NCBI GenBank assembly: GCA_026397505.1
Contig: JAPLUR010000062.1
Coordinates: 1-57,328, forward strand
DNA from: Candidatus Zixiibacteriota bacterium
Lineage (GTDB): Bacteria > Zixibacteria > MSB-5A5 > GN15 > PGXB01
Reading direction: 5' to 3'
Length of the DNA stretch: 57,328 nucleotides
Shown one piece after another: positions 34,822 to 39,743 of the stretch. A program made the translations under genes and the position numbers. The notes beneath the pieces were generated by a model. The model worked only from the letters and a program-made list of their open reading frames with translations. It had not been told where the DNA came from and did not search any database. Position 1 is the stretch's first letter. Every line of letters starts with the position of its first letter.

Positions 34822-35346
34822 ATGCCGAAAGAAATAATTGAGGATAGTTCAAATTCTGAACTGACCTGGGAACTGATGAGAGTCCTGGAAAAGGAAGCGT
34901 CTCTATTTGAAACATTCCTGGATCTGCTGGAGCAGCAACAAGAAGCTCTGGTTCGGAATGATGTTAATCGTCTTAACGAAATTACCGAGAGGCAAAAAGA
35001 GAAACTCGTGTCCGCCGGGCAATTGTCAAAAAACCGGGAGGAACTGATCAGGAGATTGTCGGAACAGGGGAAAGCTTCGGAGAACCTCACCATATCGAGG
35101 TTGATTGAATCGGCATCTTCGGGACAAGCGACCATGATGGAACAACTCCGTGAAACCATCCTGGAACTGAATGAAAAGATCATGAAAGTGCGCTCACAAA
35201 ATGAGATGCTGATCAATCGTTCGCGTGAAAATATAATGAAAACCATTGAACTGCTAGGGCGGATTAAGATGCCTGATGATCAATATCACAGTGAGGGAAA
35301 GCGGAACGTCGTGCAGGGCAGCCTGGCCCTGGATAGGAGAGCATAA
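34822..35346 (+). CDS. flgN: FlgN-family export chaperone
   Basis: A protein of 174 residues, almost fully helical and coiled-coil. The features of FlgN are visible: an N-terminal helix with KEASLFETFLDLLEQQQEAL, then RNDVNRLNEITERQKEKLVSA, and a C-terminal helix that would hold substrates (about 110-150). FlgN keeps FlgK and FlgL unpolymerised and delivers them to FliJ/FlhA. Its stop overlaps the flgK start (ATAATG at 35343), right before its client. Confidence 0.85.
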   Translation: MPKEIIEDSSNSELTWELMRVLEKEASLFETFLDLLEQQQEALVRNDVNRLNEITERQKEKLVSAGQLSKNREELIRRLSEQGKASENLTISRLIESASSGQATMMEQLRETILELNEKIMKVRSQNEMLINRSRENIMKTIELLGRIKMPDDQYHSEGKRNVVQGSLALDRRA

Positions 35347-36740
35347 TGGCCGGATTGTTCGATGGATTGGAACTGGGGAAAAGGGCTCTTAACACTCATC
35401 AGCTGTGGCTGAATACAATCGGGCATAATATTGCCAACGTGAATACGCCGGGGTACACTCGTCAGAGGGTTAATATCAGTACCACTCCCCCGCAGGAATT
35501 GCCGCAGGGGATGGTCGGCACCGGCGTAAGTGCCGACAATATCAGACACGTCCGCGATCTGTTCCTCAACCGGCAATATCGCAATGAAAATAAGTCGCTG
35601 GGACAATGGACCGGGCAGGAGAAAATCCTCTCGCAGATAGAGGCTCTGTTCACGGAACCGAATGCCGAGTCGCTTGGGGACCTTCTGGATAAATTCTGGG
35701 CCGGCTGGTCGGATCTGGCCAATAATCCGGAGTCGGTCGGGGCCCGCACCGCTCTGAAAGAACAGACCAATCTTCTGACCAGCGGTTTTCATCGTATCTA
35801 TTCCAACCTTCAGGATCTCCGCAAATCGGTGGATGACGAGATCGTTCTGACAGTCGATAATGTCAACAGCCTGGCCTCGGAAATCGCCTTAATCAATCAG
35901 CAAATAGCCCGCACCGAGTTGGGTGGGCAGAAAGCCAACGACCTGCGCGACCGCCGTGACTATCTGATTGACCAGTTGTCTGAATTTGTGGATGTCAATG
36001 TGGCGGAGCAGAAAAATAATACCGCCACGGTCTATATCGGTTCGCTGGCCATCGTTGACGGGACCACTTCATTCCGCATTGATACCCGAAAAGTCGGGGC
36101 CGGCGAAGTGACCAGCAGCGAAATTGTCTGGGAAGGAACCACCATGACCATCAAAAATCTGAACGGTCAGTTGAAGGCGCTGGTTGATGCGCGCGACCAG
36201 ATCGTTCCACAGTATTTATCAAAACTGGATGCCATGGCGCAGGCGCTGATTACCAATGTCAACACGCAGCACCAGAAAGGCATTGGACTGGATGGTTCGA
36301 TCGGGCTGAATTTCTTCGATCCACGGAATTTCGGCGCCGCCACGATATCATTGAATGACACCATTGCGAACAATGTTATCAAGATCGCCGCTTCAAAGTC
36401 GGGCGAAGTCGGAGACAATGTCAATGCTCTGGCCATCGCCGACCTGAAAAACGCGTCAGTCTTGATGAGGAATACCGCCTCCCTGAGTGAGTTTTACAAT
36501 TCCCTGATCGGAGAAATTGGCGTGAATACCGGGAAGGCCAAAAATCTGAAAGAAAATTATGAACTATTGGTGGGACAGTTGGATAATGCCCGTCAGTCAG
36601 TGCAGGGGGTATCGCTGGATGAAGAAATGGCGCAAATGATCAAATACCAACATGCTTTTGATGCGGCCGCGCGCGTGATAACGACCATGGATCAGGCACT
36701 GGAGACTGTTATCAAGGGAATGGGAATAGTCGGACGGTAG
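35346..36740 (+). CDS. flgK: Flagellar hook-associated protein 1, FlgK
   Basis: A protein of 464 residues. N-terminal rod/hook motif LNTIGHNIANVNTPGYTRQR. The FlgK-specific GTGVSADNIRHVRDLFLNRQ and NPESVGARTALKEQ segments follow. The C-terminus has VSLDEEMAQMIKYQHAFDAA and ARVITTMDQALETVI. It forms the first junction zone between hook and filament and is exported with FlgN. Shorter than the enterobacterial protein, mainly in the central domain. Confidence 0.95.
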   Translation: MAGLFDGLELGKRALNTHQLWLNTIGHNIANVNTPGYTRQRVNISTTPPQELPQGMVGTGVSADNIRHVRDLFLNRQYRNENKSLGQWTGQEKILSQIEALFTEPNAESLGDLLDKFWAGWSDLANNPESVGARTALKEQTNLLTSGFHRIYSNLQDLRKSVDDEIVLTVDNVNSLASEIALINQQIARTELGGQKANDLRDRRDYLIDQLSEFVDVNVAEQKNNTATVYIGSLAIVDGTTSFRIDTRKVGAGEVTSSEIVWEGTTMTIKNLNGQLKALVDARDQIVPQYLSKLDAMAQALITNVNTQHQKGIGLDGSIGLNFFDPRNFGAATISLNDTIANNVIKIAASKSGEVGDNVNALAIADLKNASVLMRNTASLSEFYNSLIGEIGVNTGKAKNLKENYELLVGQLDNARQSVQGVSLDEEMAQMIKYQHAFDAAARVITTMDQALETVIKGMGIVGR

Positions 36741-36785
36741 CCAAGTAAACATTAACAGGTCTGAACCAAGACCACGGAGGGTGTT

Positions 36786-37109
36786 TTGCTGATACTAACA
36801 AGGAAGTTAGGCGAATCGATAACGATCGGTGACGATATCAAAGTGACGGTCCTGGGTGTCTTTGGAAGGCAGGTCAGGATCGGCATAGATGCACCGTCAA
36901 AAGTGGTTGTGCACCGAGAAGAGATATACGTCAAGATTCAAAACGAGAATCGGAAAGCGGCCAAATCGGTCAGACAGGATTTGGTTAATGTGGTAAAACT
37001 GCTCAAGGACAAAATCTCCGGCGACACCCGCAGAAAAGCAAAAGCGCCGGAAATAAAGTACAAAAAGACGACGCGAAAAACACCGGATGATCAGCAATCG
37101 GGACATTAA
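36786..37109 (+). CDS. csrA: Carbon storage regulator CsrA with extended C-terminus
   Basis: A protein of 107 residues. The first ~60 are a complete Csr[37 protein letters not shown] and [13 protein letters not shown], including the RNA-binding Leu4/Arg6 and Arg44-region residues (VHREE). The remaining ~45 residues are a Lys/Arg-rich tail not found in short CsrA. CsrA represses translation by binding GGA hairpins; the fliC leader has such motifs and fliW is nearby. The start is TTG 36786 behind GGAGGG. Confidence 0.94.
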
Positions 37110-37121
37110 CGGGAGGCGAAA

Positions 37122-37292
37122 ATGTTTTGGAATAAGAAAAAGGACAAAAAAGGCAATGATGATTACAAATCAAACCGGTCAGGAAACTCCGGCAAAGATA
37201 AAGACACCGGCGCGAAACCGACACGCGCTTCTTTGATGCAGAAGATGTTCAAGGACGGATGCGATAAGGACTTCGTCTATTACGAAGAATAG
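37122..37292 (+). CDS. Small Lys/Asp-rich protein between csrA and flgL
   Basis: A protein of 56 residues, not matching any family I know. It opens MFWNKKKDKKGNDDYK, continues with a Ser/Gly/Lys-rich segment and ends DGCDKDFVYYEE. The middle has a short amphipathic helix (RASLMQKMFKD). It is very likely real. GGGAGG lies 5 nt before ATG 37122, the stop TAG is 6 nt before flgL, and it starts 12 nt after csrA. No signal peptide or membrane segment. Its place in a csrA-x-flgL-fliW order suggests a regulator or chaperone, which is inference. Confidence 0.75.
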   Translation: MFWNKKKDKKGNDDYKSNRSGNSGKDKDTGAKPTRASLMQKMFKDGCDKDFVYYEE

Positions 37293-37298
37293 GATCCG

Positions 37299-39227
37299 AT
37301 GAGAGTAACCAATAAAATGATCAATGACCAGGTGGCCTTCAACCTGAATCGCTCGCTTGACCGTTTCATGCGCATGCAGGCGATGATGTCCACCGGGCGG
37401 CGGATCAATCAACCCTCCGATGATCCGATCGGAACACAGAAGGATCTGGGATACCGAAAGGTTTTGACCGAGATCAGCCAGTACAAGAAAAACATCTCCA
37501 GCGGTCTGAATACCCTTTCCACCTATGATAATATTCTGGGAAACATGAAGGATATGGTGTCCTCGGCTTATGAGGTGGCGGTATCACTCTCCAATGACAC
37601 TTATGATGCGACCGCCCGGATGGGCGCCGCCAATGAGGTGGAATCGCTCTTCAAGCAGGTGGTTGATATGGCCAATTCTCAGATAGAAGGGCGATATATA
37701 TTTTCGGGATTCCGCACCAAGACCAAACCGCTTGCGATAAGCGCCACGGGCGTGGATTATTTGGGGGACCACGGCCGGATTGAGATTGAGGCCGAAGCCT
37801 CATCGAAAGTTGATGTGAATCTGATTGGCGCCGATATTCTCTTCAAGCAACTCAGCAAACTTGGAGAAACCGCCGATCTGAAAGCCGGCATTACCGGCAC
37901 GACACAATTATCCGACTTGAATCTTGGTCGCGGAGTAGACCTGGCGTCCGGAACATTCGAGGTAAGAGACAATAATCTCGGCTTAAATGTCATGGTCGAT
38001 ATCAGTATTGCTAATACTGTCGATGAGGCCATCACCCTGATTAACAGCGAACTGGCAATGAGCGGCATAACCAATCTGAAGGTCGATTTCGGCGCTGAGG
38101 GAAACAATCTAAAGTGGGTTACGACCAATAGCGGCCGGATCGCCGCCGGAACCTTGCTGTCTAATCTGAATGCCGGGCATGGAGTCGACCTGTCTACCGG
38201 AAAAATTGCGGTGCATAATATCGACAATAGTATTAATATCGAGGTTGACTTCTCGGGCACCGCCAATATTGGCGATGTCATCGCCAGAATCAACAGCACC
38301 CTTTCAGCCGGCGGAGTCAATAATGTTACGGCGGCCATTGATGCCGCCGGAACCGGTATCAGCATTATCGATGCCAACGGCACATCGCTGGGGCTGACAA
38401 TTGATGAAGTCTCCGGCTCCAGCACCACGGCCGCCGATTTGGGCCTTATGGGCTCGATAAACCCGGTTCTGAATGGACAGGCACTCAATCCGCGCCTCGA
38501 CTTTTCGGTCACGGAGTCGGCCCCCGGGCTGACAACGGCCACCGACCTGGGATTGCAGGGTAGTGTGACCGGAGACAGGGGCGGAGATGCCATTGCCCCT
38601 CGTCTTTTAGCCACAACCTCGCTCTCCCTTCTCAATAATGGTGATGGATTTGACCTGGGACAGATAAAAATTTCGAAAGGGCGAGAGGTGGCCTATCTTG
38701 ATCTGGGCAACTCGGCTTTTACCACCGTGGGTGACTTGATTGATGCCATTAACAACAGCGGCCTGGATATTGTTGCGGCCATTAATTCATCGCAGACGGG
38801 AATTCAGATTGAGCCAACCTCAAATGACAGCTCATTTATGATCGAGGAAGTCGGCGCCGGCCGTACGGCACACGTCTTGGGAATTTTCGGATCCTCGGAT
38901 TTACTTGGATCGCTCATAGTTCTGGAAAAGGCGCTGCGCAATAATGACCGGGAAGTGACCGGGCAGTTGATAGGCAATCTCAATCTGGGGATGCAGGAGC
39001 TTCTGAATCATCGGGCCGGTGTGGGCGCCAAGGTTATCAGGCTGGAGACAACTGATTCGCGGCTCGCTGACCTCAATTACAACTTTACCAAATTACTGAG
39101 TGAGGTCGAGGATGCCGATTTAACCAAGCTTGTATCCGACCTGGCCCAGCAGGAGAACAGCTATCGCGCCGCTCTGATTGCCTCATCGAAAGTAATACAG
39201 CCTTCACTTTTGGATTTTCTGGACTAG
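37299..39227 (+). CDS. flgL: Flagellar hook-associated protein 3, FlgL, with hook-IN inserts
   Basis: A protein of 642 residues, about twice the usual FlgL length. The N-terminal flagellin-like part has MRVTNKMINDQVAFNLNRSL and STGRRINQPSDDPIGTQK. IEGRYIFSGFRT follows. The C-terminal helix (about 535-642) ends LAQQENSYRAALIASSKVI. Between them lie three related blocks of the flagellin-IN type, each with a VDLASGTFEV/VDLSTGKIAV/FDLGQIKIS strand, then a V-D-E/D-A/V-I-x-x-I-N helix. It forms the second hook-filament junction. It starts 6 nt after the small gene. The inserts probably make a large surface-exposed domain. Confidence 0.9.
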   Translation: MRVTNKMINDQVAFNLNRSLDRFMRMQAMMSTGRRINQPSDDPIGTQKDLGYRKVLTEISQYKKNISSGLNTLSTYDNILGNMKDMVSSAYEVAVSLSNDTYDATARMGAANEVESLFKQVVDMANSQIEGRYIFSGFRTKTKPLAISATGVDYLGDHGRIEIEAEASSKVDVNLIGADILFKQLSKLGETADLKAGITGTTQLSDLNLGRGVDLASGTFEVRDNNLGLNVMVDISIANTVDEAITLINSELAMSGITNLKVDFGAEGNNLKWVTTNSGRIAAGTLLSNLNAGHGVDLSTGKIAVHNIDNSINIEVDFSGTANIGDVIARINSTLSAGGVNNVTAAIDAAGTGISIIDANGTSLGLTIDEVSGSSTTAADLGLMGSINPVLNGQALNPRLDFSVTESAPGLTTATDLGLQGSVTGDRGGDAIAPRLLATTSLSLLNNGDGFDLGQIKISKGREVAYLDLGNSAFTTVGDLIDAINNSGLDIVAAINSSQTGIQIEPTSNDSSFMIEEVGAGRTAHVLGIFGSSDLLGSLIVLEKALRNNDREVTGQLIGNLNLGMQELLNHRAGVGAKVIRLETTDSRLADLNYNFTKLLSEVEDADLTKLVSDLAQQENSYRAALIASSKVIQPSLLDFLD

Positions 39228-39257
39228 AAATAAGACATTGGATAAGGAATAGATTTT

Positions 39258-39743
39258 ATGAAGATTACGACACAGCGATTCGGTGACCTGATGATCCCGG
39301 AAGAGAAGATTATCACGATGCCAAAACCGGTATTGGGATTTGAGCACTTAAAGAGGTACTGCCTGATCGAAAGAGAAGACACCGCGCCTTTTCTCTGGTT
39401 CCAGTCGATCGATGACCCGGCCGTGGCATTTATTATTGTCAATCCGGTTTACTTCTATTCCGATTATCGAATCGAAGTAAATCCGAAAGAAATCGAGGAA
39501 CTGGATATCTCCGACGTTCGGATGGTGGAGACATATGTCATTGTGACGATCCCAGCCGATCCGAGCCAGATGACCATTAATCTCCAGGGTCCAATCCTGA
39601 TAAACACCGAAACCCGGCTGGCCAAGCAATTGGTGCTGGTCAATTCCGAGTACGGAGTCAGGAATCGCCTCATCGCCGATGGAGAAAAAGTCCCGGTCGA
39701 GAGTGTCGTAGAGGAAAACGCAGAAGCGCCGGTACTGGTTTGA
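39258..39743 (+). CDS. fliW: Flagellar assembly factor FliW
   Basis: A protein of 161 residues. Family features are the N-terminal beta barrel with ITMPKPVLGFEHLKRYCLI, PFLWFQSIDDPAVAFIIVNP, a VIVTIPADPSQMTINLQGPI strand pair and NTETRLAKQLVL near the C-terminus. FliW binds either flagellin or CsrA. When flagellin is exported, FliW frees itself to trap CsrA and relieve repression of flagellin translation. All three partners (csrA, fliW, fliC) are encoded within 8 kb here. Confidence 0.96.
   Translation: MKITTQRFGDLMIPEEKIITMPKPVLGFEHLKRYCLIEREDTAPFLWFQSIDDPAVAFIIVNPVYFYSDYRIEVNPKEIEELDISDVRMVETYVIVTIPADPSQMTINLQGPILINTETRLAKQLVLVNSEYGVRNRLIADGEKVPVESVVEENAEAPVLV

What the first reader, a model, noticed from the sequence alone, without database searches (positions are those of the whole stretch)
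37122..37292. A 56-residue gene between csrA and flgL
It has a near-ideal ribosome-binding site and tight spacing on both sides, but falls below common length cutoffs and is easily missed. Its position between csrA and flgL-fliW makes a part in CsrA/FliW control or FlgL export plausible.
Basis: partly seen in the sequence, partly recalled or inferred. Interest (0 to 1): 0.5.

Follow-up and report, generated by a model that had tools for sequence, protein, structure and literature searches.

The report
Small protein gene tied to csrA
A tiny, easily missed gene sits right after the RNA-regulator gene csrA in many Zixibacteria, even in some that have lost their flagella, so it probably makes a new helper or brake for CsrA rather than a flagellar part.

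Summary
A 56-codon gene (here X) lies at 37122-37292, 12 nt after csrA and 6 nt before flgL, with a GGGAGG ribosome site. It is a real gene: homologues occur in 44 of 132 genomes of its phylum (Candidatus Zixiibacteriota), one per genome, just downstream of csrA in the 43 where csrA is on the contig; dN/dS is 0.07-0.36 where computable. Members are short, charged and probably disordered, and nearly all end in an acidic-aromatic tail, D-x-x-F-[V/C]-[Y/F]-Y-[E/D]-[E/D]. A strict DNA pattern for that tail finds only X in the 132 genomes. No curated Pfam or NCBIfam family fits, PHROGs gave nothing convincing, and 254 genomes outside the phylum gave no match. X is kept beside csrA in ten genomes with no match for flagellin, FlgL, FlgK or FlhA, two of them (99-100% complete) without FliW too. 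Best reading: a lineage-specific CsrA partner, most likely an antagonist or modulator acting through its tail. No binding was shown, and a thin AlphaFold run of a csrA-X read-through did not dock the tail.

The parts
36786..37109 (+). csrA (TTG start, 107 aa, with a C-terminal extension of about 50 aa)
   Evidence: Pfam CsrA E 6.4e-25 and NCBIfam csrA
37111..37116 (+). GGGAGG ribosome-binding site of X
   Evidence: sequence; 34 of 42 X genes have an SD-like core upstream
37122..37292 (+). X, 56-aa csrA-linked small protein
   Evidence: 44 of 132 genomes, downstream of csrA in 43 of 43 resolvable; dN/dS 0.07-0.36 in the 16 of 31 pairs where it could be computed
37122..37151 (+). N-terminal aromatic-basic segment MFWNKKKDKK; membrane or partner anchor only guessed
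   Evidence: 33 of 42 members have 3 or more K/R in the first 10 residues
37224..37253 (+). weakly predicted short helix RASLMQKMFK
   Evidence: AlphaFold read-through model, local pLDDT 54-59 only
37263..37289 (+). C-terminal tail motif DKDFVYYEE
   Evidence: D 41/42, F 42/42, V/C 41/42, Y/F/W 42/42 (members were partly picked by this motif); strict tail pattern finds only X in 132 genomes
37291..37294 (+). AGGA, likely flgL ribosome site, overlapping the X stop codon (suggests coupled translation; inference)
   Evidence: sequence
37299..39227 (+). flgL
   Evidence: Flagellin_N E 3.8e-16
39258..39743 (+). fliW
   Evidence: Pfam FliW E 9.5e-40

Best explanation
X is a small, probably disordered protein made from the csrA message, in many genomes probably by coupled translation, and it works with CsrA. 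Shown: a gene selected at the protein level, its place after csrA, its persistence without flagellar genes and without FliW, and the conserved C-terminal tail. Inferred: the tail (D-x-x-F-V/C-Y/F-Y-E/D-E/D) binds CsrA and modulates it. It most likely antagonises CsrA by offering acidic and aromatic side chains to CsrA's basic RNA-binding surface. It would act beside FliW, or in place of it where FliW is gone.
For: One match per genome in 44 of 132 genomes. In 43 of the 44 csrA is on the same contig and strand and X lies just downstream of it (coordinates compared; in 42 loci the X start is -4 to 103 nt after the csrA stop, 36 of them within -4 to 25 nt). In G027 the contig begins just before X, and flgL follows. 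Ten X-bearing genomes have no match for FlhA, Flagellin_N (G125 and G127 by elimination from a cut list), FlgK or FlgL: G069, G098, G104-G109, G125, G127; four of them (G069, G109, G125, G127) are at least 90% complete and at most 5% contaminated. G069 and G125 also lack FliW. G125 is the only one of 123 CsrA sequences read in which residue 55 is not N; mutating N55 of Campylobacter CsrA weakened FliW binding (PMC7829508, abstract; equivalence of the positions inferred). So X outlived both FliW and that residue there. The tail is the most conserved part, and its strict DNA pattern hits only X, 14 of 14 sites, with varied third codon positions. Known CsrA protein antagonists exist (FliW, CesT: PMC7652899, passages; PMC5864733, abstract).
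Against: No binding data. AlphaFold2 of the csrA-X read-through (6 rows, monomer) gave mean pLDDT 54.3 and left the tail (residues 159-168) under 50, so no docking was seen; the set-up was weak. No CsrA residue convincingly separates X-bearing from X-lacking genomes: T21 is T in 42 of 42 X-bearing and 22 of 80 other sequences, but the difference may just follow family f4, whose loci all lack X. The tree needs at least 10 changes of presence, so X is often dispensable and CsrA works without it in most of the phylum. G103 (76% complete), otherwise without FlhA and FlgK matches, still has a shortened FlgL-like gene (474 aa) between X and fliW that the Flagellin_N search missed, so a family search alone does not prove loss.
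Confidence: 0.45

Rival explanations
1. X is an adaptor: its aromatic-basic N-terminus (MF[F/W]xKKK) binds the membrane or a nucleic acid, and the tail recruits another partner (a ribonuclease, the ribosome or an assembly factor). It is linked to csrA for co-expression only, or to place CsrA-bound messages.
For: Two conserved ends joined by a variable linker; 33 of 42 have at least 3 K/R in the first 10 residues. In the non-flagellate G069 csrA-X lies upstream of threonyl-tRNA synthetase.
Against: No partner identified. The N-terminus is poorly kept in f5 (45-46-aa members without MF..K).
Confidence: 0.25
2. X is part of the flagellar checkpoint: it binds FliW, flagellin, FlgL, FlgN or FliS, or is exported.
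For: In the X-bearing loci of f1, f2, f3, f5, f10 and f18 and in 5 of 7 of f19 it lies between csrA and flgL; in G103 it lies before a shortened FlgL-like gene.
Against: Kept in ten genomes without FlhA, flagellin, FlgK or FlgL matches, two of them near-complete ones without FliW. Not found in 51 of 51 f4 csrA loci (one cut off inside csrA), 49 of which have flgL directly after csrA.
Confidence: 0.12
3. X is only a coupling ORF that sets spacing or translation between csrA and the next gene; its protein does nothing.
For: Tight spacing; the likely flgL ribosome site overlaps the X stop.
Against: Amino-acid conservation of the tail with codon third-position change, dN/dS 0.07-0.36, and conservation where the next gene is fliW or, in G069, an 84-aa frame without a Pfam match.
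Confidence: 0.05
4. Artefact: a chance ORF in the csrA-flgL gap.
Against: 44 of 132 genomes, two of them outside the profile's alignment; purifying selection.
Confidence: 0.01

Closest known systems
FliW (CsrA antagonist of Bacillus, Campylobacter and others)
   Same: small protein encoded near csrA in flagellar operons; would act on CsrA
   Different: FliW is a protein of about 160 aa (PF02623), present separately in this operon at 39258-39743; X has no FliW match and is kept where FliW is lost
CesT (T3SS chaperone that competes with mRNA for CsrA)
   Same: model of competitive protein antagonism of CsrA (PMC5864733, abstract)
   Different: a dimeric chaperone of a type III secretion system; X is 45-69 aa, probably disordered, and matches no Pfam family above its cut-off
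FlgM and other small flagellar regulators (recalled)
   Same: short, flagellar operon context in flagellate members
   Different: no FlgM match among 39 members; X lies beside csrA also where flagellar genes are gone
Hfq or SSB acidic C-terminal tips (recalled)
   Same: disordered linker ending in a short acidic or hydrophobic C-terminal motif
   Different: X is a separate protein with no known folded domain; no sequence relation tested

Membership tests
FliW | PF02623 domain | tested here: not met
   no FliW match for X at E<=1 nor for 39 members
FliW | direct binding to CsrA | not testable with these tools
   only a weak AlphaFold read-through, no docking
CesT-like T3SS chaperone | chaperone domain in Pfam | tested here: not met
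   no such match among 39 members; length 45-69 aa
FlgM anti-sigma factor | FlgM family match | tested here: not met
   no such match in Pfam or NCBIfam
known annotated family of any kind | match above a curated cut-off in Pfam or NCBIfam, or a convincing PHROG match | tested here: not met
   window X: best Pfam DUF5845 E 0.0092, 16.3 bits against a cut-off of 28.5; over 39 members each of 10 Pfam families is hit by one member only, best E 0.0046 (BAR_3); PHROG best 0.0029, one member; NCBIfam best 0.033, one member
csrA-linked X family (defined here) | csrA immediately upstream | tested here: met
   43 of 43 resolvable genomes of the genome-wide profile search
csrA-linked X family (defined here) | C-terminal DxxF[VC][YFW] within 14 residues of the end | tested here: met
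   window DKDFVYYEE; seen in the 42 measured members (one has H for D, one D for V), with the caution that a loose form of the motif was used to pick them; G019 and G027, found by profile, also carry it
protein antagonist of CsrA (works like) | releases mRNA from CsrA | not testable with these tools
   needs an RNA-binding assay

The most novel reading that the evidence does not exclude
X is the first member of a new class of CsrA control: a disordered, csrA-linked small protein whose acidic-aromatic tail mimics the GGA-bearing RNA ligand and titrates CsrA at a ratio set by coupled translation. It arose early in Zixibacteria and outlived flagella and FliW.
Probability: 0.22. Interest if true: 0.75.

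Novelty: new variant of a known kind. Interest (0 to 1): 0.5.

Why it matters
Few protein regulators of CsrA are described (FliW and CesT are those named in the review passages read, PMC7652899). A third, very small and unrelated one that persists without flagella and without FliW would show how CsrA is controlled in bacteria that kept it after losing motility. It would also give a peptide-sized CsrA ligand that can be tested in vitro. It is further a clear case of a conserved small gene that the family libraries searched do not hold.

Tried and rejected
AlphaFold2 on the csrA-X read-through (36786-37289, TAA read as Q; 6 rows): mean pLDDT 54.3, pTM 0.27, tail under 50. Inconclusive; a first alignment with X-only rows misaligned and was not used. 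The second prediction job was not used.

CsrA positions separating X-bearing from X-lacking genomes: T21 stands out but may just follow family f4; within f1 the best-separating columns lie in the variable C-terminal part. Dropped.

RNA reading: Rfam gave one chance hit, SNORD49 at E 0.14. The fold of 37070-37140 is not unusual, z -0.24. No sigma-70-like promoter was found at 36650-37400 (0.8 expected in shuffles); the four terminator-like sites are all on the minus strand.

Solved structures: best profile match E 1.1, chance. DUF5845 (E 0.0092, one member) rejected as below cut-off.

Outside the phylum: 88 of 254 genomes have csrA (212 of 386 less 124). I looked at 56 csrA loci from 51 of these 88 genomes; 55 gave a csrA hit and none a tail-bearing ORF within 500 nt, best X-profile E 0.029. 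L189 gave no csrA hit and was dropped. In one search at most 16 candidates per genome were scored.

My first count of genomes without flagellin or FlgL included G103. A check showed a shortened FlgL-like gene there, so G103 was taken out; FlgK and FlgL searches then agreed for the other ten.

Literature: seven searches showed no title or abstract start on such a gene: 'CsrA, FliW, small protein' (13 papers, 12 listed), 'Zixibacteria, CsrA' (0), 'CsrA, C-terminal extension, FliW, allosteric' (30 with at least 3 terms, 12 listed), 'CsrA, protein antagonist, CesT, FliW' (10 with at least 3 terms), 'Zixibacteria, flagell' (13, 10 listed), 'csrA, flgL, small open reading frame' (0), 'Zixiibacteriota, csrA' (0). 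Only the listings were read, plus the abstracts of PMC7829508 and PMC5864733 and passages of PMC7652899.

Full report
WHAT IS THERE. The 56-codon frame at 37122-37292 is real and as described. It has a GGGAGG ribosome site 5 nt before its ATG, csrA ends 12 nt upstream and flgL begins 6 nt downstream. The AGGA likely to serve flgL overlaps the stop codon of X. Neighbours are flgN, flgK, csrA, X, flgL, fliW. X matches no curated family above its cut-off and no solved structure beyond chance.

IT IS A GENE. A first search of 60 genomes with the window protein found 18 with a match at E<=10. Fourteen of the loci so fetched hold csrA, an X frame and flgL in that order. The csrA family was then sought in the whole class, which equals the phylum here (132 genomes; 124 with csrA). 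124 csrA loci, the window included, were examined; one duplicate of G022 was dropped, and G019 and some second csrA copies were not among them. An X frame was found in 42 and not in 82. By family: f1 7 of 14, f2 6 of 6, f3 2 of 2, f4 0 of 51, f5 4 of 5, f6 0 of 2, f7 0 of 2, f8 1 of 1, f9 0 of 4, f10 2 of 4, f11 1 of 1, f12 3 of 3, f13 5 of 5, f14 2 of 2, f15 0 of 4, f16 0 of 5, f17 0 of 4, f18 2 of 2, f19 7 of 7. Two of the X-lacking loci, one in f4 and one in f1, end inside csrA (L091, L102), so absence there is not shown. A profile search of the 132 genomes, not tied to csrA, gave 44 genomes with one X each, among them G019 and G027, which were not in the alignment; two further matches (E 0.024 and 0.067) were set aside as chance. 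dN/dS could be computed for 16 of 31 same-family pairs and ranged 0.07-0.36; five of these 16 have dS under 1 (0.07, 0.09, 0.24, 0.26, 0.36). The other 15 pairs were saturated, or, in one near-identical pair, had 3 replacement and 0 silent changes.

ORGANISM. The genome-contig scan returned five named loci, all Candidatus Zixiibacteriota (72 stretches matched the peptide pattern, 5 were confirmed). Their X proteins are identical to those of G029, G018, G003, G024 and G016; G003 is in the window's own family. So the window is from that phylum (inference).

ANATOMY. The 42 measured members are 45-69 aa (median 58), on average 21% K/R and 16% D/E, strongly hydrophilic. The best-kept part is the C-terminal tail: D 41/42, two free positions, F 42/42, V or C 41/42, Y/F/W 42/42, then mostly Y and two acidic residues; the stretch from the D to the end is 9-14 residues. 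Because the loose tail motif was used to pick members, these counts are partly built in; G019 and G027, found by profile, also carry the tail. A strict DNA pattern for the tail plus stop found 14 sites in 132 genomes, all of them X, and the reversed control found none. It covers only 14 of the 44 X genes, but no other protein of these genomes has that exact ending. Many members start M-F-[F/W] plus lysines (33 of 42 with 3 or more K/R in the first ten residues), and ten of 42 carry a central D-P-x-x-x-[Y/F/M]-x-R stretch.

IT FOLLOWS csrA, NOT THE FLAGELLUM. Comparing the coordinates, 43 of 44 X matches lie just downstream of csrA on the same strand; in G027 the contig starts just before X. 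X starts -4 to 25 nt after the csrA stop in 36 of 42 loci and 80-103 nt after it in the other six (starts chosen by eye in part). Flagellin_N was found in 108 of 132 genomes, FliW in 116 of 132, FlhA in 6 of 22 selected genomes, FlgK in 3 and FlgL in 4 of 17 selected genomes; three of those 17 (G000, G096, G123) served as flagellate controls and all matched. Ten X-bearing genomes have none of flagellin, FlhA, FlgK and FlgL: G069, G098, G104-G109, G125, G127; for G125 and G127 the Flagellin_N absence is read by elimination from a cut list. Four of the ten are at least 90% complete and at most 5% contaminated; several others are fragmentary. G103 is not counted: it keeps a shortened FlgL-like gene (474 aa) between X and fliW, which looks like a half-way stage. 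Family f12 (G100-G102) has X and FlhA but no flagellin, FlgK or FlgL match. G069 and G125 (99% and 100% complete) also lack FliW; so do G104 and G014 (89% and 86% complete), where gaps may explain it. In G125 the CsrA residue N55 is H, the only such case of 123 sequences read; mutating N55 of Campylobacter CsrA weakened FliW binding (PMC7829508, abstract; equivalence inferred from equal numbering). This argues that X serves CsrA itself.

HISTORY. On a quick tree of 116 rows (FlgK, CsrA, FlgL and FliW pieces; 37 rows with X) presence of X needs at least 10 changes (35 of 113 inner branches weakly supported). Since X is always in the same place, repeated loss is likelier than repeated gain (inference). 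None of 254 genomes from outside the phylum matched (44 of 386, all in the phylum; at most 16 candidates scored per genome), and none of 55 outside csrA loci carries a tail-bearing ORF within 500 nt.

MECHANISM. Shown: a selected small protein, fixed beside csrA, with a conserved tail. Inferred: it acts with CsrA, and the tail is the contact. Antagonism is the favoured direction because both protein regulators of CsrA named in the review passages (FliW, CesT) are antagonists (PMC7652899) and because the tail is acidic and aromatic while CsrA's RNA face is basic (recalled). The AlphaFold attempt did not show docking. It was a monomer with six rows, so it neither supports nor refutes.

NOVELTY. 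The family is new to the libraries searched, and no title or abstract start listed describes it. If it works as proposed, it is a new variant of a known kind: protein control of CsrA.

Noticed in passing
L064, L044, L022 (family f16: G114, G115, G116): A different conserved small ORF (65-66 aa...FQWHISG... / ...IEWEITG...) occupies the same slot between csrA and flgL; it does not match the X profile (best E 0.31).
   Followed up: partly
window 35346-39743 and relatives: csrA lies between flgK and flgL in flagellate Zixibacteria; in outside csrA loci where flgL or fliW was found the order is mostly flgL-fliW-csrA or flgL-csrA-fliW.
   Followed up: partly
families f6, f7, f11, f13, f14: FliW is kept in 11 of 12 genomes of these families (not G104), though none has a Flagellin_N match and the 11 tested for FlhA have none; an FlgN-like protein lies upstream of csrA in G109 (f14). 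FliW may have a non-flagellar role with CsrA there.
   Followed up: no
L217:935-2359 (G103): A shortened FlgL-like gene (474 aa, matching the window's FlgL only from about residue 59) between X and fliW in a genome without FlgK and FlhA matches: perhaps a decaying or repurposed FlgL.
   Followed up: partly
L142 (G069): In this non-flagellate the csrA-X pair follows a sigma-70-family gene, DUF2225, PilZ and alginate-export genes and precedes threonyl-tRNA synthetase.
   Followed up: no
family f12 (G100-G102): FlhA present in all three, and an FlgN-like gene upstream of csrA in G101, but no flagellin, FlgK or FlgL match; these may be lost, missed or very divergent.
   Followed up: partly
L075 (G125): Only CsrA of 123 with H instead of N at residue 55, in a genome without FliW.
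   Followed up: partly
G266: An outside-phylum genome with nine csrA matches.
   Followed up: no
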